DNA of 64,000 nt from Chlorella sorokiniana (Eukaryota; Chlorophyta; Trebouxiophyceae; Chlorellales; Chlorellaceae): contig CP084612.1 in NCBI GenBank assembly GCA_025917655.1, positions 1,178,001 through 1,242,000 of the forward strand. Direction: 5' to 3'. Positions 4,389 through 42,900 of the stretch are shown here, piece by piece. Both the position numbers and the translations under genes were made by a program. Under the pieces are notes generated by a model. It worked only from the letters and a program-made list of their open reading frames with translations, had not been told where the DNA came from and did no database searches. Position 1 is the stretch's first letter. Every line of letters starts with the position of its first letter.

Positions 4389-6869
4389 TCAGGCTGCCGC
4401 CACACCGCCGGTCGGGCTGAGGGGCTCAAAGGTGCGCAGCCACACCCCCAGCCTGTGGTTCTCCAGATGCTCCTGCAGCCAGCCCAAGCGGAGCACAGAT
4501 ACAGATGGGGCGGCGCGAGCGGTCGCAGGGCAGCATACGGCAGAGGAGCGGCAGCTGTAGATTGCCGCGGTGTGCACGCCTGTCAAGGTCTGCACAGGCA
4601 CCTACCTGGGGGCGGGCCTCCGCCGCGGAACTCATCAAACAGGGCCAAGCTCTTGCGGTGCACCACCTCCATCTGCTGTGTGGTACATGTAACAAATGCA
4701 GCATTTCAATCCCGCATTGAAGGAGGCGGGCAAGCGTTTCCCAGAATGCGTCGTCTACGTTGAGCTGACGCCAGCTGGCGCTGCCCACCTGCGGCTGGCG
4801 GTGCGACTCGTACGCCCGCAGCGCCTCGGGGGTGGGGCCGTGCTGGCCTGCGGCAGGGAGAGCAGTGGCCGAGCCTCAGCACTTGTGCCGCTGTGCCAGG
4901 CGCGCAGCCACCGGCAGGCTCACCGATTGCCCTGCCCAGCGCCACGGCGTCCTCAAAGCACTGGCTGGTGCCTTGCGACAGCAGGGGCGTTGCCAGGTGG
5001 GCAGCGTCGCCAGCCAGCGCCACGCGGCCGCGACCCCACACCTGCAGCAGGGACGGAGCAGTGGGCAGGGAGTGGGAGGGGATGCCTGTGGGAGGGCATG
5101 GGTCGGGTGGGTGCGGGGGGTTGAGGGCAGCGCGGGGCAGGACAGGCGCTGTCCTTTGGTTTCAAACGCAGCATTCCTGGCCCACAACCTCGCAGCCGCA
5201 CCCTGCAGGCGTCTGGGTGGCGATACAGCTGGGGATGCTCGGTGATTGCCATGGGATCGGTGGCCTCCACCATGCTCCGCACCTGCACGACGTCATCGCA
5301 TCGGTGCCGCAGCGAAAGACTGGCAGCTGCGAGTTGCATGAGGGCCATTGCCAGTTGGAACAGGACACGCTCAACAGGATGAGGATGTCGGCGGGTGCCC
5401 CGCAGCGCCTGTCGGCCCCCTCACCCGAGAGCACCAGCCCTCCAGGGCCCCAAGCGCCCGCAGCTTGCGTGCCTGGCCCTGCTCTCGACGGGAAAGCGCG
5501 TCCTGCGTGTACATGGCTCGGGTGCCGCCAATCTCCTCCAGCCGCTCGGCTGGCCAGGGAATGAAGGCCTGGCAGGGGAGGCGTGGCAGGGGAGGCGGGG
5601 TGCACGCAGGCATCAAGGAGCAGCCGCAGCAGCTTGACGGGGTCCAGGCAAGGTTGGGGAGGACGCGGCGGGTCTCGATGCGCCTAGCCACCTGCCAGCC
5701 CACGTTTTCGCCATGCAGCGGGAAGGAAAGCACCATGGCCGGCGGCACCCAAAAATGCAGTAGCTGCCGGGCTCCTGCGGCCCCCAGTCGGGTCGCGGCA
5801 GCACTGCACGCCAGATGGCGGTGCCTGCACGACGGGAACGTCGCGGCACTTGGCGCAGATCAGGAGCCAATAACCTGGCCAAGGACACAACGCCGCCCTA
5901 AGCGGAAGCTCAGCTACCTGCAAACGTGGGTGGGTCGTCGCCCAGCAGCTGCGCCCGCACCGCCGACTGGCCGCCGTCGCAGCCCACCAGCAGGCTGGCG
6001 GCCAGGGGCGGGCGGTCGCCGTGGAAGCGCAGCGTCACGCCCTGGGGGCCCTCCTCGTAGCCCTCGACAGCGGCTTGCTGGTGCAGGATGCCGGGGGAGG
6101 TGGGCGGCCAGGGTGGACTGCGGGCAAAGGAGGCCAACATTGTGGGGCTGGGCGCCTGGCCGCGCCTGCAGCTGTCTCTATCCCCAGCAGGATCCCTTCA
6201 GCGCCACCTGCAGCTCGTGCCAGGCGCAGGCCACGGGGCCAGGCCGGAGTGGCGCAGCGTGAACTGGGTGCGGCTGTCCTCGCCCTCCTCTCGGCGTCAG
6301 CAGCGAGCCGTCGGCCCGGAAGTGCCTGCAAGGCCGGGCAGACCAGCGGGCAGACACCGAAGATGAGCGGGCAGGCGCCAGCGGTCAAGCGTGGGTCTCA
6401 AGCTACCAGGCCGCGTCAAACTGCTCCACCGCGGCTTGGCGCGCTTGCATTGCCGATGTGCCCGTCAAGAATTGGCATGCAGGCGGCCAGCAAGGAGCAC
6501 GCTCACAAGCGGGGGCCCAGCAGGCAGTGGATGCCCTGCACGGCTGCCAGCAGCTGCGGGCTGATGGCTTCCAGGGCCCGGAGGCCGTTGGCTTGGACCC
6601 CGACGACGGCGCCGCGGGGCGCAGCACAGAGCGCTCCAACACCTGCACCCTGAGGCTGGGGCTGCAAGGCGCGGCAGGAGGGGCATGTACTGCTCGGTGT
6701 ACTTGCACTGGCACCAATGAGCGCTCGAGTGCAGCAGTTGGGTGCTCTGAGGGAAGCGCCCACGTGGGGGACCCAACCCTGCCCACCTTGCACACCTGGC
6801 AGCCAAGATGGCGGCGGCAGCAGCCAGCCCGCCGGGCCCACCACCAATCACTGCCACGTCCACATGCTC
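4389..6869 (-). CDS. Class A FAD-dependent monooxygenase
   Basis: A multi-exon flavoprotein monooxygenase of the zeaxanthin epoxidase/salicylate hydroxylase/UbiH type. All three family signatures are present: the dinucleotide fold VAVIGGGPGGLAAA (about 6800-6860), the DG motif VGCDGGQSAVR (about 5955-5990) and the GD motif RVALAGDAAHLATP (about 4985-5035). Between them are VQVLERS, WHELQVALKG, IWRAVLPRPDWG and an ITEHPQLYRHP segment typical of the fold. It should use NAD(P)H and O2 to hydroxylate or epoxidise a substrate that cannot be named from sequence. The first supported exon begins at an acceptor at 6869, so the true start, and any targeting peptide, lie upstream in about 6900-7300 and were not resolved. 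Several exons need single-base corrections at C or G runs (near 5748, 6093, 6616). All domains are intact, so I do not call it a pseudogene. A truncated relative lies at 9140-9429. Confidence 0.72.
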
Positions 6870-7289
6870 CTGGCATGGCAGGGGGCCTTGGGGGAGGGTT
6901 CATAGAGACAAGAGGGCAAGTTTGACGCAGCCTACTCAGCTCCCAAAGGCTGTAGCGGCACCAACTGCCGCCGCATGCTGGTACCTCCCTGCGCGCTGGT
7001 CCATGCCTGGATCTTGCTGCAAGGCAGGGCCCGCTACGCACCTTGGACGCGCTGTCAGAGCTGCAGGGGGCCATGGAGCGGGTACTCGGCCCTGGGCGCC
7101 GGCAGGTGCCATGGGAGGGGGCAGGGCAGGCTGTAAGGGAGGCCTTGTGAGGGGAAGAGACTGACACATGCATGGCATGCGCTCCACGGTGTTTGTGAAG
7201 CCCAGAAACACGGCTGCCCTGGCCCGGGGTCCTGCATATGGGCAATGCGTACCAGCTTCTGCTGGCAGCACGGCGCTTGTAAAGCAAAA

Positions 7290-7303
7290 TTACAACATTT
7301 ACA
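7290..7303 (-). terminator. Poly(A) signals (two TGTAA) for RCCR1
   Basis: Two TTACA words on the plus strand at 7290-7294 and 7299-7303, about 105-115 nt past the RCCR1 stop: a good distance for the algal TGTAA signal. Confidence 0.55.
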
Positions 7304-7405
7304 TTCGTAGCAGCGCCTGAATGAATGCAAGGATCAATTGATAGCATGCCCTCGTGCATCAATCAGCGGGCTGGCAGGGGCAGCTGCGCAGCCCAGCCCT
7401 ACGGG

Positions 7406-8796
7406 CTACGCAAAGCTGCGGGGCGGCAGGTCCAGGCAGCCGTGCATCGCGGCCAGCAGCCGGTTGACGGCCTCCGAGCCAAACAGCGCCGCGGCCATGG
7501 GGTTGCCCGGATCATCGATCATCGCTGTGTGTGTGTGGGGGGGGGGGGGCGGGGGCGGGGGCAGAATCATGCGACTGCGGCGCTGCACCACCAGGGGCAA
7601 CTCGGGCTACGCAGCATTTCCAATGATCCACCCCCAGCCAGCCCGCTTTTGCATGTGGTGGGCTACTACTGGCTCGCCCGGAGGGGCTGCTGCTGCAGTC
7701 CAGTCCCTGGCACCGAGGTCACTCACACTTGACGTACCGCGCGTCGTACCACTGCACCGTCTCCGCGTCTGGCAGGCCGCCGCCGCCCACCGCCTCCCGC
7801 TGGCCCTGCGCCACCAGGGCCGCCCACAGCTGCGCCAGCTCAGCGGCTGTCTGGCGGGTCAGCTCCAGATTGTCCTGGGGGAAGCGCAGGGGGTGCAGAG
7901 CCGAGTCACAGCGGCTACAGAATCACGCTTTCGCATGCTCCGCCCTGCGCAACGTACGGTGCACGCTGTATCATGGGTTCCCGCCACACACCGGCAAAAC
8001 CTCGCATGAACACACCTCTGTCGCATCAAAGGTGTAGGCCAGCGCCGCGCTGAGCACCGGCTTCATGCACAGCTCCGGCGACTGGTAATGGCGCCAGCCA
8101 GGCCGCTGCAGCGCCTCGTTGTACAGGTCGTTGTATGCACGGCGGGTGCCTGGTGGCGCGCTGCCCATGTACCGCTGCGTGTACTCCTCGTCCAGCACCC
8201 AGTCGCGGCGGCACAGCAGGCCCGCACAGAAGAAGACCTGCGGCGGCAGGCGCGGCCGCCGTAGCCCGCATGCGCATGCACCGCTGGGAATGCGCGGCAG
8301 CAAGCGCTGCGCCACGCCCGGCTGCCCCGTGCACTGCTGGGCCCGCCCCGCATGCGCGGCTGCCGAGGCGCACCTGGCCCCCCGCCAGCGTTTGCTCCAG
8401 CATGAGGTGCGGCACGTCGCTGCAGGCGGCGGCAAATCCGGTCACTGTAGTGCCGCCAAAGCCCTTTGAGGAGGAGGCCAGGGTGGCGGCGGACAGCCAG
8501 CGCACGCCCGGGCCGCTGAAAGCACGCGCTGCCGCCGCGGACGTGCCGTCTGCCGACTCCACCTGCAGCTGGCCGCTGGGGGCAGCAGAGCCCACGGCCG
8601 CCGGCGCCAGCCCCAGCTGCGCAGTCAGCTGCCCCACTACGGCCAACTGGCTCTTCCGCAAAGCATGGAACACTGAACTGGAGCTCTCCAGCTGCTGCAA
8701 AGCCTTGGGGCCTTCCTCCTCGGTGGCGACGGCGAAGGGAGCCACGCGGAAGCGGCGGCGGCGGGGAAACAGCGGGGGCGCCCGACAGCCGTGCAT
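7406..8796 (-). CDS. RCCR: Red chlorophyll catabolite reductase, copy 1
   Basis: Four exons (8374-8796, 8016-8237, 7727-7874, 7406-7524) join cleanly into 303 residues, normal for precursor RCCR. The N-terminus MHGCRAPPLFPRRRRFRVAP looks like a plastid transit peptide. RCCR hallmarks are present: GVRWLSAATL, TVTGFAAACSDVPHLMLEQ, RRDWVLDEEYTQRYMG, WRHYQSPELC and ALAYTFDATE. The Glu of PHLMLE and the Asp of TFDA fall where Arabidopsis RCCR has the substrate-contacting Glu154 and Asp291. The plant family reduces the C20/C1 double bond of red chlorophyll catabolite, made by PAO, using ferredoxin. The exon 3-4 junction regenerates a Ser codon with donor GTGAGT. Two PAO-like and two more RCCR genes lie in the next 22 kb. 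No frame correction is needed. Confidence 0.92.
7526..7561 (-). repeat. TG/G-run low-complexity tract in RCCR1 intron 3
   Basis: A (TG)n stretch passes into a run of G, then CGGGGG and CGGGG, on the plus strand, immediately upstream of the last RCCR1 exon. On the coding strand it is a C-rich polypyrimidine-like tract in front of the acceptor. The plus strand could form a G-quadruplex. Confidence 0.7.
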
Positions 8797-9139
8797 GCTG
8801 CCCCGCGCAGGGCCGCATCACTACTGCCGTCCTGGCGGCCATTGAGGGCCAGCTGCCTGCGCCGCAAGCCTTGGGCGTCGATCGAAGTCCCACGGGCTGC
8901 CGGGCGTGCAGGTGTGTCAGCTTCATGCCAGTCGGTCAAAACTAACCACAAGTCGTTAATGGCCCAGCTCCGTGTTGTATTCATGGGTGGGGCATGTCGG
9001 AGAACACATGAAACTGCGCGCGCGCATTTTCACCTCTGACAATTGAGCATCCCCTTGCGCTGTAATCCCAAAACTAATACTGATCGTTTTTATCGGCGGC
9101 GCTAATGCTGCAAGCCGAGGACCTCCCGTCCATCGGAAG

Positions 9140-9429
9140 AAGTCTTGAGGGACTTGACAACCCCTGCTGGCGCAGGATGTAGGGGGGGAGGTGGGCGGCC
9201 AGGGTCGACTGCGGGCGCAAGGGGGACCAGCTTTGTGGGTGTGGGGTGCCTGGCACTGCCTGAATCGTCTGCTTCCCTGGCAAAACCCCTGCAGGGCCCT
9301 GCAACGCCACCTGCAGCTCGTGCCAGGCGGCGGCCACCGGGGCCAAGCCGCAGTGGCCCAGCGCAAACTCTTCCCGGCGGTCTGCGCCGTCATCCGCGCT
9401 GAGAAGGGAGCCATCGGCAAAGCAGTGCC
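9140..9429 (-). pseudogene. Truncated copy of the FAD monooxygenase
   Basis: Two pieces match internal exons of the gene at 4389-6869 in order. The first, from an acceptor at 9429, encodes FADGSLLS, then FALGHCGLAPV and AAWHELQVALQG. The second, about 9160-9215, encodes STLAAHLPPYILRQQG. The intron between them resembles the parental one. The Rossmann exon, DG motif and GD motif exons are absent on both sides, and no start or stop context suits a gene. It sits just upstream of RCCR1, while the full gene sits just downstream, so it probably remains from a duplicated monooxygenase-RCCR block. It could alternatively be a surviving part of a gene whose other exons lie outside recognisable sequence. 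Confidence 0.6.
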
Positions 9430-9541
9430 CTGCAGGGGAAGGCACTTTCCAGCAAGGGGCTGCACTCCCGCCCCGCAGACGCCCTTGGCCCTCGACCCGA
9501 CGCCGGCATCCGCTGCAGGCGTTGATGGGCAAAACATCCTC

Positions 9542-9546
9542 TTACA
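9542..9546 (-). terminator. Candidate poly(A) signal TGTAA for PAO-like gene 1
   Basis: TTACA on the plus strand, about 330 nt past the stop at 9874. Confidence 0.4.
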
Positions 9547-9873
9547 AAGCTACAGTACATGGCCTAGAAATACAGGAAGGATACAGCTAAATTCACAGGA
9601 TCAACTCAGGGGCGCAGTGCATCAGCAGAAAACTGAAAGATGCGGGTCGAGTGGAGGTACAGGCAGGACGGGTCGCGCCACATCGGCATGGGCGCAAAAA
9701 ACACAGTGGTCCAATCGACAGCTCGCACACTACAACAGGCGTACAAGCAAGCTTGGGTGCGTGAGTTCTATCAGCCAGGGCTCAGGGATTCCAGAGGTAC
9801 ATTCTGTACCATCTTCTTGCGGCGAGCACCAAAAGAAGCCGCCGTGCAGGTCGTGCAGGTGACCAGCACCGCC

Positions 9874-12800
9874 TCAGCGCTCGGCATGGACGTAGTCTTT
9901 GTAGATGAAGAGGGGCAGCGTGCTGTGGGCAACACCTGCCACCACGGCACCCACCAGCGCCACCAGGGCGGTGGCAGCCCCGTCGGCCCACGGCACCCAG
10001 GCGGCCGCGGCGGCGGCGGCGGCGGCCAGCCCCAGGCCCCCACGCGTGCGAGGCGCAGGCGGCGCAGCGCGGCGGCGCAGGAGGGGCAGCGCTCCGTGTG
10101 CTGGCGCAGGCGATCCAGCAGCACGGCATGGGAGGGCTCCTCCGGGGGCAGCCCGCCGCCGTGGGCCCACGGCACGCCGCCGGGGCCACCTGCGGGGCAG
10201 CGGGCAGGCACCGGGGGTGGAGGCCAGGCTGAAGGCGGGGGAGAGGAGCAGATGCATCAAACGAGCACCAGCAGGCTGCAGCCGCTGCGCCGCCGGGCCC
10301 TCACCCGCCAGGTCGTTCAGCCAGCGGCGGAAGGCGACCACGCCGCCGTCGCTGGGGGTGGGCATGAAGAAGGCAGAGCGGAAGTCGCCGCCGGCCTGCA
10401 GGCAGCGGCAGGAGCCGGCACATCAGGCGTCCCCGCACACTGCCTCGGCACGCCTGCTTGGGCTTGGGCAAAGCCGCATGGCAGCAAGGGGGCGTGCTGA
10501 GCAGCGTCTGCAGACCCCCCCCCAACACCCACCCACCCACCCACCCACCCGCCCCCACCACCCCCACGCGGCGCACCTGCGCCAGGCGCCGCTCCTGGCC
10601 GTGCAGCAGGATGAGGTCGCCATCCAGCACCTCCTGCAGGGGGCAGGCGAGGGCGGCACCAAGATCGTCCAAGGTGCGCCGCACAAACAGGCTGCTGCAC
10701 GTAGCGCATCCGTGCAGGGTGCAGCGTGCCCCAGGCTGCACGGTCTGGCCTCAACGGCGACTGCACAGCCATCGCGGGCTGCCTTGCTCCTCAGCCAGCA
10801 CACAGCGCCCTGCCAGCGCCGCACTTCCCCCGAAATCTCCATCCTACCCCCTCCACCACCACACACATACACACACTGACACAGACTCGCAGAGACACAT
10901 GCAACCATCAGCATCCACCCGCCCACCAACAAGCGCCGCGCCCCCTTGCCTGGGTGTAGAGGTGCAGCAGCCAGCGCGGCACGAGGTCCAGCAGGCGGCG
11001 CTGCGCGGCCCCCGCGGCGTCGGCGTACGAGGTGGTGAAGAGCAGGCAGTGGCCGGGGGCGGGAGGGCACCGAGTAGCCGCAGGTGTAGAGCGTGCCGCC
11101 CTTGACTGCGGCGGCGGCCGGGGGCAGGCAGGCGTCTGAGGCGGATGGGCAGCTGGTGCTGCCTGCCAGGACCGCCATCCGCAGATGGATGCACTCATCT
11201 GGCCGGCCCAGCCAAGTCAATCCCCTGAAGTGCAGCACACTGCCCCTCCCGTCCGCCAGCGGGTGCAGCAGCGAGCCCTGTTAGACGCAGGGCGCCCACC
11301 GGGGTGATCTTCTGGCGCACGAAGCAGGGCGGGCGGAATTCCAGGGTACGCTCCGCGACGGGCAGCTTGCGGGAGGTGGCGCCCACGCTGGTGCTGAAGC
11401 CGCCCTCCAGGCTGATGTCGCCCTGGGGAGACGGGGGGGCAGGGGCGGTGGCGGGCAGGGGCAGTCCTTACGCACCGCCTTGCATCAGCAGTCAGCGGCC
11501 GGGCCAGCGCAGAGCGCAGCAAGGGTTGCAGCGGGTCAACCACCAAGCACCCGTGCGTTGCACCATCCAAGCCACCCACACTCGCATCCAGGCCTTGCCC
11601 CAGGCTCTGGCCACTCACCTGCAGCTTCACCCCGTACGGCAAAGCGTCTTCCCGCTTGCCCAGCAGGCCGTGGTGCGCAAAGTTGATGTGGCCTGCGTGG
11701 AGGCCAAAAGGGCGGCGAGTTTTGGGCGTGACGCTTAGCTGGCAGCCTCACAGCTGATGCACCCCCCCCGATTCGGCTTTCGCCCCTGCAACCCCGGGGC
11801 CTTGCCGGGCAGCCCAACGTGAGGGTATCCCCGTTCCACCCAGCATGTACTGCCAGTTACCAGGCAGCTTCCTCTCACCCGGATCCACAATGTTCTCCAC
11901 CATCGTGTCCCAGCCGTAGGGCACCTCCCGCACCAGCCAGCCCCCGCCGATGTTGACAAAGCGAGGCTCCTCGCCCCCGGCGGCGGCGCCGCCGCCCACC
12001 GCCCCCACGCCCCTACCAGCAGGTCTGGGTGGGCGGGGGGCGGGCCGGCAGCGGCTGCTGCTTCGGCCGCCCGGGCGCCGACTCGGGCCAGACCCAGACC
12101 AGCCCTGCCGCCTCGGCGGTGGGGAAGACGGCGGCGCAGGCGCGGCGGTTGCCGCACGCGGCCGCCTCGTTGCGCGCATCCATGGCCTGCGACGTGCAAA
12201 GAAGCGCAGCGGGGCGCCTCGCCGTGAGTTGCAGCACTGCAGCAGGAACGGCAGCAGCGCAAGCAAGCATCCGGCACCGCAAGGAGCTGGGTGGGGCGGC
12301 TCGGAGCCTACCCCACAACTGCCTCACCTGAGGCATGCGGGTGCACTTGCCGCTGCCCTCGAAAGACCAGCCGTGGTAGCTGCACAGCAGCTGGCCGCCC
12401 GTCACCTTGCCCTCCGACAGGGGCGCCAGGCGGTGGGGGCAGGCGTCGGCAAAGCAGCGCCACGTGCCGTCGCCGTCACGCCACAGCACAAGCTGCCGGC
12501 CAAACAGGGTGAAGGCGTGCGGGCGGTCGGCCGGCAGGTCGGCGGCAACGCCCGCAGGGTACCACTGCTGCAGCCAGGGGTAGGCAGATGGCGGCGAGGC
12601 TGGTCCTGCAGCGGGCGCCGGGGTGGAAGCCGAGGCAGTGCCGCTTGCTGGCGCTGCCACGGCGCCGTCGAGAACCGCTCCGGGCTTGCCCACGGCGCTG
12701 CGCGGGCCGCATGCCCATTCAGCTGTGCCTTGGCGACAACTCGCAGCCGGCCTGTAAAGCAGGGGAGAGGAATAGCGGGTCACAACATGGCAAAGGCCCC

Positions 12801-12955
12801 AGGCACCGCTGACTCGCAGGGCGCTGGAGGGGCGGTCGTCAAGCAGGGCACCGACCCGTGCAGTGGGTGCGCGCACCGGTCACGGATCGCTCCGCACGTG
12901 TCTTCAACGTCGCATGGCGGGCGCCCGCCCTGCTGCAAGCCAGAGAAGGTTGCAT
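9874..12955 (-). CDS. PAO-like Rieske oxygenase 1 (pheophorbide a oxygenase family)
   Basis: Start chosen at 12955 (MQPSLACSRAGARHATLK) because the exon then splices in phase to RLRVVAKAQLNG, a good plastid transit peptide. The Rieske domain follows: CPHRLAPLSEGKV and CSYHGW, i.e. CxH...CxxH, at about 12350-12450. Next comes VFPTAEAAGLVWVWPES. The mononuclear iron site is ENIVDPGHINFAHH, split by an intron between about 11680 and 11910. Later exons give GDISLEGGFSTSVG, ILLHGQERRLAQ and FMPTPSDGGVVAFRRWL. The tail carries the redox CxxC motif HTERCPSCAAALRRL and a hydrophobic segment, as in PAO, TIC55 and PTC52. PAO opens the chlorin ring of pheophorbide a. The adjacent RCCR genes favour PAO over its relatives. 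Frame corrections are needed near 10037, 11070 and 12695 and in the 12010-12060 stretch. Confidence 0.82.
10507..10565 (+). repeat. (CCCA)n-rich low-complexity tract in a PAO1 intron
   Basis: A run of C followed by about seven ACCC units and a C-rich tail. It lies between the exon encoding ILLHGQERRLAQ and the one encoding FMPTPSDGG. Confidence 0.7.
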
Positions 12956-14204: not shown

Positions 14205-17200
14205 TCAGCCTGAAAACACAGCTGCCAGATCGCGTGCGCTGCCGCCCAGCGCCGCCACCATGCTTTCCGGGTTGGCAGGCAGGCGCACCAGCGGCTCGCC
14301 GACCGAGGCAGGCAGAGCACCCACGGCGCGCAGCTCAGCACGCCCCGCCCTCGCTGCCGCCTGCAGCGCCGACAGCACCGAGGCGGCCAGCATGAGGGGC
14401 GGCTCGCCGATGGCCTTGGCGCCGAGCACGCGGCGGCGAGCCAGGGCCGAGCCCTGCATGGGGCCGCAAGAAGAGGCAGTCGGTTGGGCAGGCTCACGAG
14501 GTCGGGCATGCAGCGCTGTATGCAACCCTGCACCACCCAGGGTCTGTGTCAGTCGCATTTGCATGTCGTAGCGAGCCCCACGCGACAGGTCGGGCATGCA
14601 GCTCTCTCTGCATCCCTGCACCACCCAGTGTTCATGTCAGTCGCATTTGCATGTCGTAGCAAGCCCCGCACGACACCTCTTCACCCCTGCCGCCCACATC
14701 CCGCCGGCACCCCCAGCTCACCGGCAGCAGCGTGACGTTGAGCTCCCGCGGCAGAGCGGCGCCGCCGGGTGGGTGGTACTCCCACAGCGAGTCGGTCAGC
14801 AGGCGGGCGGTGGCGGGGTCGTGGCGGCGCGCCTCGCTCAGGCACTGCCCCAGCCCCATGGCAAAGGCGCCCTCGGCCTGAGCTCAGGCAGGAAGCAGGG
14901 GGTAGCGAGGCGGCGCTCTCTTGCACGGCCATGGCAGCAAGATTCAGAGCAGGCGCTAACTCGAGCCACAGGCTGGTTCTTCATGTGAATGCACGCCCTC
15001 CTCCCCAACGCTTCCACCGGCAGGGTGCCTGCTCTCCCTTTCGGCTGCGAGGTCTTTTTCCGGCGCTTGCGTTTGGTTCCGCCCCCACCTGCCCCACGTC
15101 GATGGCTGGGTTCATGGACTGGCCCGCATCCATCATGATGTCAGTGCGCAGCACGCGGCGCTCGCCTGCGCAGACGTTGTGAGGCGTCGGATTTGCGAAG
15201 CTGGAGTTCGTTTCATCCAGAATCCAGCGTTAGAGTGCGCCTGGCTTGGTCTGGCGGCACTGCGGAGTGCGCGGATGCACTGTGCCATGGCTGCCAGGCC
15301 CGCTGGGTCGGACACTTGCCCAGGGGCCCGCCAGGCTGCTTGTCAGAACACCCCCTACCCGTGAGCACATTCAGCTCCACTTCCGACACGGCGGCGCCCC
15401 AGATGGAGTAGGAGAGGCCTCCCAGGGCGTGCCCGTATGCGGTAAGCGGCACCTGCGGTACAAGAAGTGCAGGCGGCACCGCTCATTTTGCGCGCACATG
15501 CACGGGCCAAGGCGGGCAGGCAGGGGCCTCTTGCCTTGCAGCCGGCCCAGGGACCCATGGCCTCCTTGACCGCCGCCATCAGCTGCCCCCAGCCGAAGTC
15601 GGGGCCCAGGCCAGCAGCATGGGGCGCAGCCGCTCCGCCAGCTGCTGGCAGGCGTCCCTCACTGCCATGCAGGCGGCCTCTGCGGGGGCCAGGGAGACGG
15701 GGGGCACGAACGGCGTGAGGCGACGGGTGCGCCGCGACCCGCAAGCAGTCACGGCAGGCAGACAGCAGGCTCGGGTGCCCGGCTGCAGCATGCGCTGTTC
15801 TGCCCCTCTCACCCGACGTGGTGCTGCCGCCGGTGAAGCTGGTGGCGGGCAGGGTGTAGGTGGACTGGTCGCCGATGCGCACCAGCTCGGGGGCAGCGGG
15901 CGGCGCGCCTCGGGCAGCAGCCTGCTGAGCTCCAACAGAGCCATCTGCACGTGCGTACGGTTTTCATGACCAGGGGTTGCCTGTCTTGGCGGATGGCATG
16001 AGGCCAGATGGACAATGCTACGATGTGTGTTGTGTCTTTTTCAGGGGCGGGCATGTGCGGGAACGCAGAGCGTTGGACCCCGACACCCGTTAGACGGCCA
16101 AAGCTGTGCGTGTCGGGAAATGCAGAAACACGTTCGGGCGCTCTGCGCAGGTGAGCAGTGCACTGCACCGCTCAGGGAGCAGCGCTTCGCCCCCTGTCCC
16201 CCTCGCCTGCTTCACTTTGGTGGTGAGGCCCTGGCCCAGCTCCGTGCCGCCGCAGAACAGGATGACGGAGCCGTCGGGGTAGATCGAGACCAGGGCGGCC
16301 TTGGAGAGGGTGGAGGTGTCGAAGCGCGTGTGCGTCATGCCCAGCCCCGCTTGAGCCAGGGGGAGGCGGCGTTGAAGGCCGCCGCCGCCGCCACGCGCTG
16401 CTCGTAGCGGCAGCCGTCCTGAGCTGGCGCCAGAGGCGGGGCAGGGTGTAGTCGGCGGCGGGAATGTCCTTGGTGGGGGTCAGTCGCACGGTGGGTTCCG
16501 CTGCTGCCTGGCAGGCGGCCTGCAGGCAGGGGCCTCGAGACTTGCGACTGGGACGCTCAGCAGCTGCGCCAAGCGCCGCACATGCCGCAGGCTTCCTGTT
16601 TACCCCATGCGCTGCGTGAGCAACAACCCCAGTATCGTTCCAAACCCAGCTGATCTCACCTCGTTCTTGCATCCATCCTCGCTGACAGGCTCGGGTGTGT
16701 GCACCGGAGGCCCGCCACCCAGCACTGGCAGCGCCAGCGGCGGCGGCAGGGCCGCCAGGTTGCGCTCGCGAACGGCGGCGGCATCCAGGCCGCATGCCGC
16801 CGCCACGCAATCCATGATGGTTTCCATGATGAAGGCGCCCTGCAAGCACGCAGCTGTGGGTCGGTAGCACAACCGTGCCACAGGCAGCGGAGGTGGAGCC
16901 GGAGGGGCTGCTTCAACAGCGAGCGACGTGCCTGTCCGTCGCCGGGGCGCGCATGGCGGTGGTGGGCGGCAGGTTGGCGCGGCAGACCTTGACGGTCAGC
17001 GAGTAGTTGGGCAGGGCATATCCCTGCAGCATGTGTTAGAGAGTGTGTGGGTGTGTGGGTGTGTGGGGGTGTGGGGTGGGGTGGGGGCACAAACGCGGAC
17101 GACAGCAGCCGTTTGGTGTTCCTGAGAAAGCAGCAGGTAGCCCTACAGCACATTCTTGCTGTCAGGCAAGCTATTGGGGCCCTGATGCGCTGCATTCGTC

Positions 17201-22779: not shown

Positions 22780-23353
22780 CGTGCTACAAAGCTATGACAG
22801 GGCACCACAAACTAGTCCAATGGAGATATACAGAGGGACAGGTAGGGCAGGAGGTACTGCTGCGTTCAGGAGGGCCGAGATCAACCGGCGTTAGAGCGGG
22901 ACCTCGCATATGTGAACTTGAAACAGCAGGGAGCTGTCTGGGACAGCGGGCGAAGCAGCCCAGCTAGGAGGTACAGGCGGCGGCCACCTGGCTGGGGCGG
23001 TAGTACCGCAACACTGTGCCATCCCGAGCCTGCGCCCCTGCCCCTCACCCCCCCTCCCCCTTGACCCCTTCGCTCCTGTCCACCCCATCTCAGCTGGCAG
23101 ATAGTTGCAGCACAGTTGTTGATGCGAGCAAACAAGCGCGGCAGCATAGCCGGCTTCTGTTGACAGGGCTGCCCGCTGCCAGCAGCAGCATTGGTGCTAA
23201 CCAATCAAACCAATCACAGCAATTAGCCTCCTGGTCACTGTAGGTTGCAATCCTTCATGCTACTTATATTACTTATGGTACAGACAACACAAAAGACACT
23301 GTGCATTGATCCATGCACAGTGGTTAATGAATTCGGCAACTGATCGACTCATC
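22780..23353. other. Intergenic, aldehyde oxidase promoter and RCCR2 3' end
   Basis: No exon supported. The aldehyde oxidase promoter should lie in the left part. A C-rich tract is at about 23035-23085 and a more AT-rich stretch at about 23180-23350. I see no TGTAA on the minus strand for RCCR2 within 300 nt. Confidence 0.45.
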
Positions 23354-24821
23354 TCACGACCTCCCGGTCAGGGCCCCCTTGAGCTTGCCATCAGCCGATG
23401 CGCCTCCGGTGATTGCAGCCGCCAGGGTTCCGCATGCCTGCTCATTGAAGAGCCACCCCGCAACCGTGCAGGTGATAGAGTTGAGCTCTGCAGGATTGTG
23501 GGGAAACGGGGAACTCGGTTGCGCCATGTGCATCGGCCAACTGGCGCTGCCACCAGCTCGACAGGGTGGGGCTTCGAGATGTGCTCTGCGGGGTTCCAGC
23601 CATGCCATCTGCCAAGTCTGCTGAGCCCACCTGACACGTAGGCTTCATCATAACGAGCCACCTCATCTGCTCCGTTTGCGGCAGGCGCCGTGCCGCCATT
23701 CTGGCTGCCGCCGCCGCCTGCATCCTTCACCAGCGCCCCCACAGCCTGGTCAGATCTGCAGCAGCCTCCGCCCATAGCTCCAGGTTCCTCTGCAAAGCAC
23801 ACGTGGCAGCTTGCCTTTGCGATTCACTGCGTTGCAGCGCATTGCAGCTGAGAGAGCACATCCTTAAAAAAAAGGCAAACTGCGATCGTTGAAGGCCCCG
23901 ACAGCCCGCCCCTGCTTACGCCCCCACCTCGCTGGGCTCAAAGGCAAAGGCCACCGAGTCCTGCATCAACAGGCGGGCCTGCGGCACCGGGGAGGTGAAC
24001 ACGCGCCAGCCCTCGTGCCCAAGGCAGCGCTTGAGCACGTCGTTGAAGGTGGGCAGGCCCTCGACGGGGCTGCGACGCAGATGAGGGCGCAAAGCGACGG
24101 TGTTGGTGTCGGGGGCTGGGCGCAGGGGCCCTTTCTTGTGCCCAAGCTGACTGCTGCAGCAGTGCAGCTGCGTGAGGGAGGCGCATGCATGGCAGCCCAC
24201 TCACCTGAGCAGTAGAAACGGCGCAGGTACTCCCTGTCCAGCAGCAGGGGCCGACGGGCCATGAAGCTGACACTAGCCTGGACCTGCACAGCAAACACAG
24301 CACCCAGCTTGACAAAATTCAGCCAAAAGCACGCAGAGAGGACTTGAAACAGGTAGGACTGCCTGCACTGCTGCGATCAGACAGTTGGGCGGCATCACCT
24401 TGCCACCCTCGATCTTGCTGCTGAGGCTGAGATGCGGCACGTCGCTGCCCCCGCCAGCCAGGCCCAGCAGGCGGGTGGCGCTGAAGCCCTGCCCGGGGCT
24501 GACGATCGTGGAGGACGAGAGCCAGCGCAGGCTGGGGCCCTGCCAGGCGCTGACCAGCGCGCCAGAGGTGCCGTCGGCAGACAGCATGTGTAGGCTGCCG
24601 TCAGACACGGTGGCGTGGTCGCAGGGGGCTGAGGCGGCCAGCTCATGGGGCTTCAGCCCCAAATCCCCGCTCAGCAGCTCCACCGCAGACTGCTGCTGGG
24701 CCAGCGCAGCCTTCAGAGCGTGCTCGCTGGACGCGTGGCGCGTGACGAGTGCTGCCGCGCTCGAGTCGCTGTCGCTGGCCTTGATGTGGGGCGCTTCAGC
24801 CGGGTTCCCATGCGCTGACAT
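23354..24821 (-). CDS. RCCR family protein, copy 2, divergent active site
   Basis: Exons 24400-24821, 24205-24283, about 23945-24078, about 23645-23797 and a last exon ending at 23354. Start is MSAHGNPAEAPHIKAS, with no obvious transit peptide. RCCR signatures are clear: SLRWLSSSTIV, GGGSDVPHLSLSSKIEGGK, RRPLLLDREYLRRFY, a GLPTFNDVLK segment and VARYDEAYV. Where functional RCCRs have PHxxxE, this protein has PHLSLSS, and where they have FDA or IDA it has FAFEPSE: the Glu is replaced by Ser and the Asp by Glu. It may therefore act on another bilin, bind without reducing, or be inactive. Exons 3 and 4 each need one base (near 24066, and in the GTGGGGGCGC stretch near 23750). It is divergently paired with RCCR3. 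Confidence 0.82.
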
Positions 24822-25350
24822 GATGCTGGAACGCCTGGAAGAGTGATTGAGCGGCTGATGGGCGCAGGAGGCGCTGAGAAGGCAGGAGGGGGCGATGAGA
24901 AGGCTGGAGTGTGCCGGGAGCGGCGCCACAATGGCTGGGGCTCCTTGCAGACCGAAACTTGCAGTTGGTAGGCGCTGAAAGCATCATACAGCGCTGATGA
25001 CAGAAACTGGAAGCGTGGGAGCACGATAAGAGGCGACGCCAAGTGCGTGCGGCAGCGCTGACGAGGCGGTGACTGCGCACCTTCCAACTCCCTCCGCACA
25101 TGTAATTGACGCGCTCCCGAGAACCTCAGCTCATCTAGTAATGATAAACTGAAGGGATGATCATTCATCGACTCAGCCTATCTTCCGCAAGCCGTCCGAG
25201 GCCGCCAGGAGAACACCGTGGTGGTCACCAAGGCCTTGTGGTTGCCCCCGGGCCTTAGGTTGCATCGAATTTGAACTTGATTTGTTGTACTGCGTGTAGG
25301 GTGCCGTTCCACACGCAGGGGATGCAAGCCCTGGGCAGCGGCGGGTGCTC
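24822..25350. promoter_or_regulatory. Shared promoter region of RCCR2 and RCCR3
   Basis: About 530 bp between two head-to-head RCCR genes. Both promoters and 5' untranslated regions must fit here, so co-regulation is likely. No specific factor site can be named from the sequence alone. Confidence 0.55.
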
Positions 25351-26739
25351 ATGCCGAGGCGCCGCCGCTTTCGCCTGCCCTTCACAAGCTGGTAGACAGC
25401 AGCCCCAGCTATTCCACGATCCTCACAACCCAGGACCTCATTGTAGAACAGCTGACCAACAGCCTCCAGCTCAGCCCCGCCGGGAGGGCACCACCGCTCC
25501 CGGCGGCCTGGTGCAAGTGGAGGGTGCCGACGACGGCTCCGGCGCGCGCGTTCGCTGCCTGACGGGCCACGGCGTGCGCTGGCTGTCCGCCTCCGCCCTG
25601 GGCCGCGCTGACCTCAGCTTTGGAGGCACCATTGTCACCGGCTTCTGTGACGCCTCAGGGGACACGCCGCACTTCCTGCTGGAGCAGACGCTGTACGGCG
25701 GTACGGTACTGCTGGTTGTGGCACTCTGGCCACGCCGCGACTGGATGGTGGACGGCGCCTACCTGCAGCGCTACTACGGATCAGGTGAGGGTGGCGGGTG
25801 CTGCTCGGGTTCCCACTGACCGGCCAGTGCTGCAAGTGCAGCCCAACAGATGCGCGGGAAGCTGTGCGGCATGTGGTGCTCCGACTGGCGGGCTGCAAAG
25901 TCCACCGCGCTTCGGCGACACGCCCCACCGGTGCTTGCTGACAGCGTGCTGCCACCCTGCCGCCCTGTGCAGCGCCCTCTGGCGACCTTCGCCCCTACAA
26001 CGAGATTTACAATGCTTGCATGGCCGCCGCCGCGGAGCGCCCGGCTGGCGCCGCTACCAGTCGCCTGAACTGTTGGTGAAGCCGATGCTCAGCACGGCGC
26101 TGGCCTACACCTTTGATGCGAGAGAGGTGGGCCGCCCCGTACCTCGCCGCCAAGCGCAGCGCTCTGCGGCTGCCCGTCTGCTGGCCCAGGGACAAGCGGT
26201 GCTGGGGAATCCCAGCCATGAAGGGCACAGTAGGCAGCGCTGCGGCTGACATGTGTGCCACGCAGCTTTTGGCACCCAAGCTATCGACCCTCGATGCCAC
26301 ACTCGGCCCCCACTGCCCTCACTCTTTGGCAGGAAGACCTGCTGGCGGCCCGGGAGCTGGCGCTGGAGGTGGCGCAGCTGTGGGCCGCCTTTGTGCGGGA
26401 CACCCCGGCAGGCAGAGCGGCGAGATAGGCCTGCAGGACGACCCGCAGGTGCAGCAGTACGATGCGCGCTACATCGCATGTGAGTGGGGCAGCGCTGCTT
26501 GCTGCAGCGATCTTTCTCTCTACTGGCCGACTGCCACTTGCGCGGCATGTGAAAGTGCACCCCCTTGTGAACCTGGCTTCCCGGCCACCCCAGCGTTGTC
26601 ATTCGGCCCGTGTGTGGCTGCTGCAGCCGTCAAGGAGGACCCGGGCAACGAGTGGGCAGCAAAGCTGTTTGGGCAGGAGGCAACCAACCGCCTGGTGGCG
26701 GCCATGCACGGCTGCCCGGATGCCGGGCCTGTGTTCTGA
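25351..26739 (+). CDS. RCCR: Red chlorophyll catabolite reductase, copy 3
   Basis: Exons about 25351-25784, 25973-26126, 26333-26479 and 26627-26739. Signatures: TILTTQDLIVEQLTNSLQL, GHGVRWLSASALG, IVTGFCDASGDTPHFLLEQ, RRDWMVDGAYLQRYYGS, YQSPELLVKPMLSTALAYTF, EVAQLWAAFVRD, VQQYDARYIA and TNRLVAAMHGCPD. The acidic residues of PHFLLE and TFDARE are kept, so it should be a working reductase. The start is uncertain: MPRRRRFRLPF at 25351 resembles RCCR1's MHGC...PRRRRFRVAP, but a frame change is needed soon after. Bases also seem missing in C runs near 25475, 26040 and 26403. It lacks the intron found in RCCR1 and RCCR2 after the PHxxxE helix, and has one after QRYYGS that RCCR1 lacks. Confidence 0.88.
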
Positions 26740-26882
26740 ACGACGTGGGAGTCCCGCCTGAGAGCGGCAGCGCCAAAGAGTGCTGCGCAAGCGCGGCCCA
26801 GCATCCTCCTCCTGTCAGCAGCCACCACTTGCAATGGCAGCCTCTTGCCACATAAGTCTGCCGCCTGTGCAGCTCTGCAGCT

Positions 26883-26887
26883 TTACA
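26883..26887 (-). terminator. Candidate poly(A) signal TGTAA for PAO-like gene 2
   Basis: TTACA on the plus strand, about 145 nt beyond the stop at 27031. Confidence 0.5.
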
Positions 26888-27030
26888 GTTTAAAGAAAGA
26901 ATTTACCTTGCAAAAACATTGCTTGCACTTCGGATTTGCTGTATATACTTTTGCCTGCTGCCGTCCGTTTCAGTTTGCTTGGGCGATCAACTATGATGCA
27001 TGGCAGGAGGCGCCACCTCAAGGTGCATGC

Positions 27031-29917
27031 TCAGTGATGTTCGCTGTGGCGCCAATCTGTAAATAGGAACTGCTGCTCCAGCTTCTGCATCGCCATAAAA
27101 GTCGCCAGGCTGGCCGCAAAGCCTGCAGCGAGCAACAGGCTGGCAGGGTGCAGAAGAGCGCCCCCTGCCCAGGATGAGCGTTAGGCCGAGAAAGGCAGCG
27201 CCTGCTGCACCCAGCAGGGCGGCGCGAGCCGTGCGAATGCCACGAAGCGCCTTTTGGCAGTGTGGGCAGTGCTCTGCAAAAGAGGAGGGAGTGCAGTAAG
27301 GACGCTTTCAAATCTCAACAAGCATTCTCGACAGGCACAGCTCCAATAGAACCTCCCCCAGCTGCTCCAGCGTCAGCCCCACCTGTGTGCTGGTGGAAGC
27401 GGTCCAGCAGAACCTCCCGGCGCATCTCCGGCTGAGGGCGCTCGGCCGCTGCCACGTTTGGGCCCCATTCAACACTGCCACCTGCAGGACAGCCAGGCTG
27501 TACCGTCGCTGCCAGGCTTCTAGCCTTGCATCTGCTCGTAACGCCAGCAGTTGACAGCAGCTAGAGATCTCGCAGCTTTCAGGTCAAGAGGCTCGACTGC
27601 GTGGCAGGCCTTGCACCCCACCTGCCGCTTGCTCCAGCCACTGGCGAAGGGTCACCACGCCGGCATCGCTGGAGGTGGGCAGGTAGAAGCCGCGGCGCCA
27701 GCCGAGGAAATCCGGGGAAGCCATGTTGGTGCCCTGGCAAGCAGGCGACCAGCAGGGGCAGGTTCACTTGAAGTGCATTCGGCGTTTTCACAGCAACTGG
27801 GCCAGCTCAACGGCGCTGGCAGGTTGGGCTCTGCTGCCCTGCTGGGGAGCCAGCCTGCGCCCGGCCTTGCCTGTCGGTGAAGAATGACGATGTCTTGATC
27901 CGCCACGGTGTGCTGCAGGAAGACGCGGAGCACCGCACCTTATCACTGTCCTTCTCTCCGCTGCCATGCAGCAAGCACCAACTGCAGCGTTGCATGCAAG
28001 CATGCAGACGTGGTAGGCAGGCAGGGGAAAGGCACGCCAGCAGGCTCCCTGGACACCCACGTTGTACAAATGGCGCAGCCAGGGCTGCCAGTGGAACAGC
28101 TTGGACACAATCCTGCAAGGCAACAACCCAGGAGGAGGCTCAGATGGAGGCAGCGGTGGCTGTGGGCTGCCATGTTGAAACCACTCTCAATTTAAGCGCC
28201 CACCTGAACTTGCTGTCGGTTGCCAGCGGCAGGCTCATGAGGCGGCTCCTGCCGGGGCCCACGGGGACCACGAAGTAGAGCAGCGCCAGCTCGCCCTCGG
28301 GGCCATGCCCTCGCTGGCAGCCCTGCGTTGACGCAGCAGCAGCAGCAGCAGCAGCTTAGCCGCCTGATCGGGCATGCTGCATCGGGAGACGCAGCTGGGA
28401 AGCTCAGCCGCGAACGAGAGATACTATCTTTCGAACCGCACACCACAGCATGCAGGGTGGCTGGAGGGTTAGGTGGCGGAAGGTGGCTCCCTTGGGGTCG
28501 TCACACACGAAGCGGTACACGCCTCGCTCGTCCTGCAGTGCAGCATCCGAACGTTGTTCAACCCTCAGCATTAATATATGCATCATGCAGAACCGGGCAT
28601 GATAAACATCGCACCAAAGTTTCGCAACTTTACAGCACCTGGTGCGTCAGCCTCGCATACCTGCTGCAGCAGCTTGATCGCGAGCGGGCCCGCCTGCGCC
28701 GCGCTGCCGATGAAGCCGGCGTGCGTGAAGTGGACGTGGCCGGGGTCGCAGCTGTTTTCGAGCAGGGGCAGGTAGTCAACGGGCAGGTCTCGCACATACC
28801 TGCAGCAAGGCGACGGCAGCACCGGTTGCAAGCGTGTACCCGGGCCGGAGGTGATGTCAGCAGCCCTTTGAAGCCAGCTCACCATGGAGACACAGCAAAC
28901 CACTCCCTGCCGCGCTGGTCAGCAGCCGGCAGCACAGGCAGCGGGGTGGCTGCCGCGCGGCGCTCCGCATCCGGCCCGGCTTCCAGCCAGACCCACAGCA
29001 GGCCGTGGGCCTCAGCTGTGGGGAAGGCCACGGCGCACGCACGCTTGCTGGAGCAGGCGGTGGTCTTGGGGGTCCCTGGCTCGCTTTGGGGGATCTCAGC
29101 GGCTGCGCCCGTCCCCTCAAACTGCCAGCCGTGCTGCACACAACGGAAAGGCAAGAGATGCTGCATGCCAGCCAGGGTGCTACAGGAAGGGAGGCCGACA
29201 GGCACACCAGGCACATCTGGCAGCCGCATCATACACACATGCGCTGCAGCTAGCCACAACCCTCACGTAAGCACACTCCAGCCGCTTCGTCTCCGCATGG
29301 ATCCTTCCCTCTGCATGTAAAGCGTGGCGCAGCACGTTAGATGACCTTCACGGAACACAGTTCCGGCGGAAGTGAGGCTGCAGCATTAGGACGCGCGCAG
29401 TGCACATTTTGCGCACCTGACAGGGGGCTGCGCGGTGGGGACAGCTGTCGCGGAAGCAACGCCAGGTGGCATTGCTGTCTCTCCACGCCACCAGGTTGTA
29501 CCCCAGGATGGTGGTCTGGTGGGGCTTGGAGGGGTCCAGGTAATCCAGAGCCGTCTGCAGTTGGGTCGGTGGGTGGATGGGGGTCCTTGGGCGCGGCGCA
29601 GGCGTGAGCAGGCATGAGCACCCATCAGAAGGCGATAGGTATGGAAGATGGACAGGCACCTCCCATGCACACGACTTGGCAAGAATGTGCAGGCGAGAGA
29701 GATCAGGGACCAGTCTCACCACGGGGTACCAGCAGCGGGTCCACGCAAAGAGGCTGCCGCTGGCAGCGGGCTCAGCAGCAGTGCCCACCGCGATGGCGGC
29801 TGCCGCCTCGCCCTGGCCCGTCACCTGGTCGACCTCAGCTGAGCTGAGCGGTGCAGCGAAGGCGTAAGCGTCAAGGGAGCCAGTGCGCAGGCGCGACGCC
29901 CTGCAGACCTGCACATT
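27031..29917 (-). CDS. PAO-like Rieske oxygenase 2
   Basis: The first supported exon starts at an acceptor at 29917 (NVQVCRASRLRTG...); the initiating exon lies upstream and was not found. Rieske motif: RDSCPHRAAP (about 29410-29445) and RCVQHGWQFEGTG (about 29115-29150). Then VAFPTAEAHGLLWVWLE. Mononuclear iron site: LLENSCDPGHVHFTHAGF (about 28705-28760), the D-x2-H-x4-H pattern. Further exons give YRFVCDDPKGATFR, VSKLFHWQPWLRHLYN, QDIVILHRQ and FYLPTSSDAGVVTLRQWL. The last exon (27031-27273) holds the CxxC motif EHCPHCQKALRGIR and hydrophobic segments, as in PAO and TIC55. It has diverged clearly from PAO-like gene 1 and could be the TIC55-like hydroxylase of the pathway instead. Its 3' end overlaps the 3' region of RCCR3. 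Confidence 0.78.
27058..27062 (+). terminator. Candidate poly(A) signal TGTAA for RCCR3
   Basis: TGTAA about 320 nt after the RCCR3 stop at 26739. It lies inside the last coding exon of the opposing PAO-like gene 2, so the convergent transcripts would overlap if it is used. Confidence 0.35.
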
Positions 29918-42500: not shown

Positions 42501-42900
42501 GGACAGGATGATGGTGTGGGCGAGGAGGCTAGAAGCTGCGGGCGCGGCAGGCAGCACCCACGGAAGTCGAAGCGGACAGTTGGAAGCGGGCGGGCGGCAA
42601 CTTCCTGGTCTTCGTCAATTATATCACAAAGGCATCCATCCATCAGCTCTCACCTGTTCCTATGGACGACAGGTCCTGAAACGAGACGCGGGGCAAGAGG
42701 TCTGCACCCTCGCTCGCCGTGCTGGCAAGGCGCCCAAGGCGCGACGGCGCCCGCACCCTGGGCTTCCCTGTGCGGACTTCGCCGTCTGACAGCAGGGGCT
42801 GGCTGCCCTCATCGTCGCTGGCTGCCCGGGAGGCGGTGGCGTCTGAGCGGAAAGAGGCAAAGAGGTTGGCCAATGGGTGTGACTGAATATTTCCAGCCAT
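39598..42900 (-). CDS. AAAP-family amino acid transporter
   Basis: Start MAGNIQSHPLANLFAS at 42900, with a Ser/Arg-rich cytosolic N-terminus of about 85 residues, and stop at 39598. The first membrane exon reads AHTIILSKTIIGAGAAALP, the classic AAAP/SLC36-38 motif. Later exons encode further membrane helices: LLLLLSLVLRCAGLVIIYV, WLGMAAVLTWVGVTLYLVA, VACLPVLATAYTCQMTIHHI, AICLCTAIFLSIALGSLAAF, FGFLLSVITIAPSQ, SVAMVSGSIWVPIQFVGATA and LIVVGVVQAAAGITATLFLP. About eleven helices are expected; most can be seen. It should move neutral or acidic amino acids with protons or sodium across the plasma or vacuolar membrane. The exon with GRPGSLLLLL needs one base near 41979. Confidence 0.83.
40297..40311 (+). 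repeat. Poly-G run (15 nt) in a transporter intron
   Basis: An unbroken run of 15 G after TGTGTA. It lies next to the acceptor of the exon encoding MAPYRESLSRLLAG. Confidence 0.8.

What the first reader, a model, noticed from the sequence alone, without database searches (positions are those of the whole stretch)
4389..29917. A chlorophyll-breakdown gene cluster in an algal nuclear genome
Within about 25 kb lie two PAO-like Rieske oxygenases, three RCCR-family genes, a class A FAD monooxygenase (plus a second truncated copy) and a plant-type aldehyde oxidase. PAO and RCCR catalyse consecutive steps in plants, where I know of no clustering of these genes. An alpha/beta-hydrolase and an AMI1-like amidase follow directly. 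Some Chlorella-type algae are known to bleach and excrete red bilins, so a dedicated, co-located and expanded gene set would be a new kind of algal metabolic cluster. The extra enzymes suggest steps beyond RCC: hydroxylation by the monooxygenase and oxidation of an aldehyde (a bilin formyl group or phytenal from phytol).
Basis: partly seen in the sequence, partly recalled or inferred. Interest (0 to 1): 0.92.

Follow-up and report, generated by a model that had tools for sequence, protein, structure and literature searches.

The report
Clustered chlorophyll-breakdown genes in Chlorella-like alga
In a green alga, genes resembling those that open and reduce the chlorophyll ring lie side by side with an extra flavin enzyme, and part of this neighbourhood seems to recur in Chlorella vulgaris, pointing to an algal chlorophyll-disposal pathway of its own.

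Summary
Between 4.39 and 30.0 kb lie two PAO-family Rieske oxygenases, three RCCR-family genes, one flavin monooxygenase (FMO), a two-exon FMO fragment and an aldehyde oxidase (AO). These three are the only RCCR matches below E 0.8 in the 38.8-Mb genome. Conservation rests on one pair: the best C. vulgaris relatives of RCCR1 and FMO1 carry consecutive locus tags (D9Q98_008333, 008332), and these unrelated enzymes share 36 of their first 38 residues, a transit-peptide-like stretch. No Micractinium FMO among the hits belongs to the cluster type. Some apparent frameshifts are assembly errors or very recent: a near-identical metagenome protein lacks three. I judge it a real, partly conserved, locally expanded chlorophyll-catabolic cluster with core PAO-like + RCCR + FMO. 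Substrates and co-regulation are untested.

The parts
4395..7130 (-). FMO1: group A flavin monooxygenase, about 12 exons, GxGxxG, DG and GD motifs present; 4 apparent frameshifts
   Evidence: best relative C. vulgaris D9Q98_008332; clade 100/99; motif names recalled
7412..8821 (-). RCCR1: red chlorophyll catabolite reductase family, 4 exons, no frameshift against C. vulgaris RCCR (one near the N-terminus against P0002); E154-equivalent kept, an Asp at or next to D291
9159..9459 (-). FMO2: truncated copy of FMO, two exons (9459-9311, 9208-9159) between PAO1 and RCCR1
   Evidence: 45-nt stretch 89% identical to FMO1
9877..12677 (-). PAO1: Rieske oxygenase of the PAO family, Rieske ligands, DPGHxxFxH iron site and C-terminal CPSC present (motif roles recalled); 5 apparent frameshifts
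   Evidence: two of the five, and a third in a read-through intron, are absent from near-identical metagenome protein P0006
14205..22779 (-). AO: plant-type aldehyde oxidase (molybdenum hydroxylase), 24 exons in the ab initio model, which leaves out a Fer2_2 piece
   Evidence: one of two MoCoBD_1 loci found in the genome
23631..24821 (-). RCCR2: diverged RCCR copy, E154-equivalent replaced by Ser, no DPGN motif found
25339..26739 (+). RCCR3: RCCR family, head to head with RCCR2, E154-equivalent kept, an Asp at or next to D291; 3 apparent frameshifts
27031..29900 (-). PAO2: second Rieske oxygenase of the PAO family, diverged; 2 apparent frameshifts

Best explanation
A nuclear gene cluster for chlorophyll (phyllobilin-type) catabolism, partly conserved between this alga and Chlorella vulgaris and locally expanded here. 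Proposed steps: (1) PAO1, perhaps PAO2, opens the macrocycle of pheophorbide with O2 to give a red 1-formyl-19-oxobilin (inferred from family). (2) RCCR1 and RCCR3 reduce this photoreactive product with ferredoxin (inferred from family and the kept catalytic Glu). (3) FMO1, whose C. vulgaris relative carries nearly the same N-terminal targeting stretch as RCCR, modifies the bilin in the same compartment, by hydroxylation or oxidative removal of a substituent (inferred). (4) AO may oxidise the formyl group or another aldehyde released in the process (position only). Shown: the genes, their families, the concentration of RCCR matches here, consecutive tags of FMO and RCCR in a second species, and the shared N-terminus there. 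Inferred: substrates, compartment, order, co-regulation.
For: RCCR matches in the own genome: 9 of 10 at E<=1 lie in this locus; the tenth has E 0.87. PAO-family matches: 11 of 18 at E<=0.1 lie in the window. C. vulgaris RCCR D9Q98_008333 and FMO D9Q98_008332 have consecutive tags and the same listed contig length of 2,546,164 bases. Their first 38 residues agree at 36 positions, without acidic residues; of the other 54 pairs tested 48 agree at 2-7, and 6 pairs of close Micractinium FMO relatives at 29-37. FMO1, C. vulgaris 008332 and P0125 form a clade (100/99) apart from all 6 Micractinium sequences in the tree. RCCR identity: a 7-row profile finds Arabidopsis RCCR in the PDB at E 2e-19; the next family, phytochromobilin synthase, has E 0.003. 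The E154-equivalent stands in RCCR1 and RCCR3. AO lacks the XDH-type Glu and Arg (alignment).
Against: PAO1 groups with C. vulgaris and Micractinium PAO-like proteins, not with plant PAO. A C1 gene is compatible with the plant clade (AU p 0.369); PAO1 inside it is worse (p 0.062, not formally rejected). In the first tree even the two CAO-like genes sat beside PAO1 (91/85), perhaps by long branches. So PAO1's substrate is uncertain. RCCR2 looks decayed; dN/dS between RCCR1 and RCCR3 is only moderately low (0.38/0.67 and 0.41/0.60). Both profile alignments place the conserved Asp one residue from D291. Four and five apparent frameshifts in FMO1 and PAO1, only some shown to be absent elsewhere. 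SGR lies on C2. Micractinium tetrahymenae has a PAO1-like protein but gave no RCCR or cluster-type FMO hit, so these genes need not be kept together. No expression or metabolite data.
Confidence: 0.55

Rival explanations
1. Only FMO and RCCR form a conserved functional pair; the PAO-like genes, AO and amidase are neighbours by chance, and the PAO-like genes are tandem paralogues with another substrate.
For: Conservation was seen for FMO-RCCR only. PAO1 is not the clear plant PAO orthologue. PAO2 is a long, unresolved branch.
Against: PAO-family genes lie on both sides of RCCR2, RCCR3 and AO, and PAO precedes RCCR in the known pathway. Chance of a PAO-family gene this near is about 0.007 (after the fact).
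Confidence: 0.25
2. The cluster is decaying: an expanded set now under relaxed constraint, with frameshifted FMO1, PAO1, PAO2 and RCCR3.
For: Apparent frameshifts: RCCR1 0, RCCR2 2, RCCR3 3, FMO1 4, PAO1 5, PAO2 2. FMO2 is a fragment. RCCR2 dN/dS is 0.8-1.0.
Against: P0006, 383 of 386 residues identical over 1,155 bp, lacks three frameshifts of the window there; P0002 lacks one at RCCR1 (262 of 264 identical, plus a one-codon gap). Genes elsewhere in this assembly need shifts too: FMO copies on C2 and C5 2 and 3, five PAO-family paralogues 0-2 each. Catalytic motifs are kept in PAO1, PAO2 and FMO1, the Glu in RCCR1 and RCCR3.
Confidence: 0.1
3. A bilin pathway other than chlorophyll disposal: PAO-like and RCCR-like enzymes making or altering a signalling or secreted bilin.
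For: RCCRs are distant relatives of the bilin reductases (PMC10151467, passages); expansion of RCCR suggests more than one product.
Against: The RCCR profile is far closer to RCCR than to other bilin reductases (2e-19 against 0.003); PAO family beside it.
Confidence: 0.1

Closest known systems
PaO/phyllobilin pathway of land plants (PAO/ACD1 and RCCR/ACD2)
   Same: PAO-family Rieske oxygenase and RCCR with the E154-equivalent
   Different: Genes are neighbours here; PAO1 belongs to a Chlorella/Micractinium lineage; an FMO and AO are added; plants use the P450 CYP89A9 for deformylation (PMC4950323, passages)
Red bilin excretion by Auxenochlorella (Chlorella) protothecoides
   Same: A green alga that opens chlorophyll to bilins on bleaching (PMC4950323 and PMC2716323, passages)
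   Different: Red products suggest that reduction by RCCR is missing or bypassed there (inference); here RCCR genes are present
Chlamydomonas/Chromochloris PAO5
   Same: Algal PAO-family member; the paper finds PAO5 closest to PAO6, then to cyanobacterial proteins, with no close Arabidopsis homologue (PMC8730698, passages); PAO5 is highest in heterotrophic Chromochloris (PMC11258321, passages)
   Different: No RCCR or FMO neighbour is mentioned in the passages read
Cyanobacterial PAO and RCCR homologues
   Same: RCCR family found in 11 of 39 PAO-bearing genomes searched
   Different: No clustering seen: 0 of 76 PAO loci had an RCCR match in the flank held

Membership tests
PAO family (PF00355 + PF08417) | Rieske domain plus PaO domain | tested here: met
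   PAO2: 4e-19 and 8e-10. PAO1 was not scanned as a gene model; its closest relatives P0004 and P0005 carry both
Plant PAO (ACD1) orthologue | Groups with streptophyte PAO | tested here: inconclusive
   PAO1 lies outside; AU p 0.062 for forcing it in, 0.369 for the C1 gene; no labelled TIC55/PTC52 rows in the tree
Plant PAO (ACD1) orthologue | Oxygenation of pheophorbide a | not testable with these tools
   biochemical
RCCR | Profile match to RCCR above other bilin reductases | tested here: met
   PDB 3agb E 2e-19, next family 0.003 (profile of 4 algal and 3 cyanobacterial rows); 7e-5 with the 4 algal rows alone; RCCR3 alone is over the PF06405 cut-off, RCCR1 under it, RCCR2 without match
RCCR | Catalytic Glu154 (role recalled) | tested here: met
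   Kept in RCCR1 and RCCR3, Ser in RCCR2; numbering fixed by the difference of 3agb and 3aga, taken as F218V (recalled)
RCCR | Catalytic Asp291 (role recalled) | tested here: inconclusive
   RCCR1 and RCCR3 have the Asp of DPGN; both profile alignments put it on the residue before D291; cyanobacterial RCCRs with one residue more before it would bring it onto D291. Not found in RCCR2
Group A flavin monooxygenase | FAD_binding_3 with GxGxxG, DG and GD motifs (motifs recalled) | tested here: met
   PF01494; motifs in the model; nearest solved for relative P0124: tropone 2-monooxygenase 1e-22, 6-hydroxynicotinate 3-monooxygenase 4e-20
Aldehyde oxidase rather than xanthine dehydrogenase | Absence of the purine-binding Glu and Arg of XDH (roles and places recalled) | tested here: met
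   GGKAT for GGKET, no Arg at the second place (alignments)
Eukaryotic metabolic gene cluster | Three or more non-homologous enzymes of one pathway co-located | tested here: inconclusive
   PAO-like, RCCR, FMO and AO co-located; one pathway is inferred
Eukaryotic metabolic gene cluster | Conserved in relatives | tested here: inconclusive
   FMO-RCCR by consecutive tags in C. vulgaris only
Eukaryotic metabolic gene cluster | Co-expression | not testable with these tools
   no expression data

The most novel reading that the evidence does not exclude
A P450-independent route to dioxobilin-type phyllobilins: AO oxidises the alpha-formyl pyrrole of the ring-opened bilin to a carboxylate and FMO1 replaces it by hydroxyl through decarboxylative hydroxylation, the chemistry of relatives such as salicylate hydroxylase and decarboxylative vanillate hydroxylase (names, activity recalled), giving a 1,19-dioxobilin that can be excreted. 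A plastid-targeted FMO and RCCR are kept together in algae that have RCCR.
Probability: 0.13. Interest if true: 0.85.

Novelty: new variant of a known kind. Interest (0 to 1): 0.62.

Why it matters
A 2009 survey found no RCCR in green algae and took it to appear with land plants, apart from some cyanobacteria (PMC2716323, passages). A 2020 paper lists the RCCR Pfam family as unique to Scenedesmus obliquus among five algae (PMC7590803, passage). An alga with RCCR beside PAO-like and FMO genes gives a concrete gene set for asking what algae do with ring-opened chlorophyll, and names an untested enzyme class for bilin modification. Clustering also makes the set easy to study as one piece. The paper searches showed no title or abstract start about such a cluster; I saw listings, cut (20 of 51; 12 of 59; 12 of 84; 10 of 20), and passages of some of the papers; the library is open-access only. 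A survey of conserved gene neighbourhoods in nine chlorophytes does not use words beginning with pheophorbide, chlorophyll, Rieske or tetrapyrrole in its main text (PMC7826186, word search; supplements not seen).

Tried and rejected
Stop-masked frames of 4,999 residues against Pfam gave nothing, so gene models were built instead. GC by codon position did not mark exons clearly. The first ab initio run merged the window into one gene; a higher intron cost on sub-regions cured it.

A bacterial operon as the source was considered. RCCR matches occur in 11 of 39 PAO-bearing cyanobacterial genomes (40 handles given, one not held), but 0 of 76 PAO loci held an RCCR match in their flanks. That test used 3 of 5 cyanobacterial RCCR proteins (two failed to extract) and C. 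vulgaris RCCR; many flanks end at contig ends, and one locus (L115) matched PAO over 45 residues only. One weak FMO match (34% over 77 residues, L081) was seen. In Fischerella (L108) PAO and RCCR seem 1.6 Mb apart, if contig C1 is that record.

Synteny with named algal genomes could not be read directly; only locus tags served. Whether the C. vulgaris PAO (P0004, contig of 912,283 bases) lies near 008332/008333 is unknown.

The shared C. vulgaris N-terminus might be one shared first exon, or an annotation effect across strains (each id stands for several sequences), rather than a duplicated exon.

Rows dropped: the PAO trees used 35 of the 120 listed hits; the second tree leaves out the two CAO-like genes, P0027, P0048 and P0049. 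The FMO tree used 19 of 72 hits. Each PAO-family paralogue was modelled on the best of 8 template proteins, the C1 gene on Klebsormidium PAO, which may favour its place near plants.

Full report
What is there. The window is G000:C10:1178001-1242000 of a 38.8-Mb, 15-contig genome, GC 0.60-0.71, with many short introns: an algal nuclear genome. From high to low coordinates the cluster reads PAO2 (29.9-27.0k, minus), RCCR3 (26.7-25.3k, plus), RCCR2 (24.8-23.6k, minus), AO (22.8-14.2k, minus), PAO1 (12.7-9.9k, minus), an FMO fragment (9.5-9.2k, minus), RCCR1 (8.8-7.4k, minus) and FMO1 (7.1-4.4k, minus). RCCR2 and RCCR3 are head to head. To the left lie a gene with an internal duplication and no Pfam match and, judged by eye from ab initio proteins, an acyl-CoA dehydrogenase and a helicase.

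How special is the place. With C. vulgaris RCCR as query, 9 of 10 own-genome matches at E<=1 lie in this locus and the tenth has E 0.87 on C8. With C. vulgaris PAO, 11 of 18 matches at E<=0.1 lie here; the other 7 fall on C1, C2, C4, C6 and 0.27 Mb further on C10. The C2 and C6 genes look like chlorophyllide a oxygenase (motif recalled; they pair 100/100). Of 14 FMO matches 5 are here, 4 on C2 and 5 on C5. Of 7 MoCoBD_1 matches 3 are here and 4 on C3. The stay-green family has its one match on C2. These searches score only the best candidates, six frames, exon by exon.

Conservation. The RCCR search gave 3 hits (8,000 candidates scored), one of them named: C. vulgaris D9Q98_008333. The best FMO relative is D9Q98_008332. 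I take consecutive tags as neighbouring genes. The first 38 residues of these two unrelated enzymes agree at 36 places and carry no Asp or Glu and 6 Arg each. Among 55 pairs of 11 algal proteins, 48 agree at 2-7 places, this pair at 36, and 6 pairs of close Micractinium FMO relatives at 29-37. This looks like a shared plastid-targeting stretch, so the two enzymes probably work in one compartment. In the FMO tree, FMO1, 008332 and metagenome protein P0125 form one clade (100/99); the six Micractinium sequences fall with the C2 and C5 copies. Neither search returned a Micractinium protein of the cluster type, although M. tetrahymenae has a PAO1-like protein (P0005). This co-occurrence rests on few genomes, on annotation and on capped searches.

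RCCR. A profile of the four algal proteins finds Arabidopsis RCCR at E 7e-5; with three cyanobacterial RCCRs added, at 2e-19 over most of the profile, ahead of phytochromobilin synthase at 0.003. The residue that differs between 3aga and 3agb in the alignments, taken as F218V, fixes the numbering. E154 then falls on the Glu of PH(F/L)xLEQ, kept in C. vulgaris RCCR, RCCR1 and RCCR3 and replaced by Ser in RCCR2. The second catalytic residue, D291, is less clear: both profile alignments put the Asp of DPGN on the residue before it; the cyanobacterial sequences, with one more residue there, suggest a shift by one. The roles of the two residues are recalled, not read. One of three cyanobacterial sequences (L118) has Ala at the Glu. 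In the RCCR tree RCCR1 pairs with a Logan protein (94/91); RCCR2 and RCCR3 are unresolved. A 91-nt stretch of RCCR1 and RCCR3 is 88% alike, which suggests conversion or late duplication. RCCR2 shows dN/dS of 0.8-1.0 against the other two.

PAO. Of 120 hits listed for PAO1 (264 found) 20 show the name pheophorbide a oxygenase and none TIC55 or PTC52, as far as the cut names tell. Yet in the second tree PAO1 joins C. vulgaris P0004 and Micractinium P0005 (99/99), while the C1 gene joins a group with plants, Klebsormidium, a cryptophyte and a diatom (91/89). Forcing PAO1 to the plants gives AU p 0.062, forcing the C1 gene 0.369. In the first tree the two CAO-like genes sat beside PAO1 and P0004 (91/85), which I put down to long branches. 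PAO2, C4, C10:1478k and C1 are long branches too and their places are unsure. So PAO1 is a PAO-family member of a Chlorella type. Chlamydomonas has eight family members, among them PAO5, whose closest relatives after PAO6 are cyanobacterial (PMC8730698, passages); PAO5 is highest in heterotrophic Chromochloris (PMC11258321, passages).

Assembly quality. The frameshift-tolerant models need 0-5 shifts per gene. P0006, from a JGI contig, matches 383 of 386 residues of the read-through PAO1 region and lacks three of the window's shifts in 1,155 bp; two lie in coding sequence and one in an intron. P0002 lacks one more at RCCR1. These are errors of this assembly or very recent; the others are undecided. 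Genes elsewhere in the assembly show such shifts as well: FMO copies on C2 and C5 need 2 and 3, the five PAO-family paralogues 0-2 each.

FMO and AO. Solved relatives of C. vulgaris FMO P0124 include tropone 2-monooxygenase, 6-hydroxynicotinate 3-monooxygenase, salicylate hydroxylase and, more weakly, a decarboxylative vanillate 1-hydroxylase. AO has the AO-type, not the XDH-type, pocket residues. In plants the formyl group is removed by CYP89A9, a step likened to Baeyer-Villiger chemistry (PMC4950323, passages). An AO-FMO pair could do this in two steps; that is my boldest reading and rests on family chemistry and position alone. As a chemical hint that algae may go beyond red bilins, colourless culture media of Desmodesmus turn red on acidification and the data suggest that the pigments are chlorophyll degradation compounds (PMC4789205, abstract and first of three parts of the text).

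Verdict. Real and interesting: a partly conserved chlorophyll-catabolic cluster, core FMO-RCCR with PAO-like genes beside it, expanded in this lineage, with AO as possible member. It is not a complete pathway, and its PAO1 is probably not the plant PAO orthologue.

Noticed in passing
window 12012-12071, 11770, 8764: Single-base frameshifts absent from near-identical metagenome/Logan proteins: this assembly probably carries indel errors, so frameshifts elsewhere in it should not be read as pseudogenes without reads.
   Followed up: partly
window 162-3967 (+): A gene with two copies of a roughly 200-residue unit (by eye), no Pfam match.
   Followed up: no
window 39598-43623 (-): Amino-acid transporter gene (PF01490, 2e-18). 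The 2009 review lists a degreening gene dee4 of Auxenochlorella with an amino-acid function (table fragment); whether this is its relative was not tested.
   Followed up: no
window 14499-14674: Two tandem 88-nt copies, 88% identical, in the 3' part of the AO gene.
   Followed up: no
G000:C2:1303.6k and G000:C6:1095.8k: Two chlorophyllide a oxygenase-like genes, as judged by motif and by their pairing in the tree.
   Followed up: partly
L116-L120 and further matches in the 11 genomes: RCCR-family genes in 11 of 39 PAO-bearing cyanobacterial genomes searched; one of three aligned (L118) has Ala at the catalytic Glu position.
   Followed up: partly
window 30443-32369 (+): Ankyrin-repeat gene followed by a U-box, possibly one E3 ligase, bounding the cluster on the right.
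   Followed up: no
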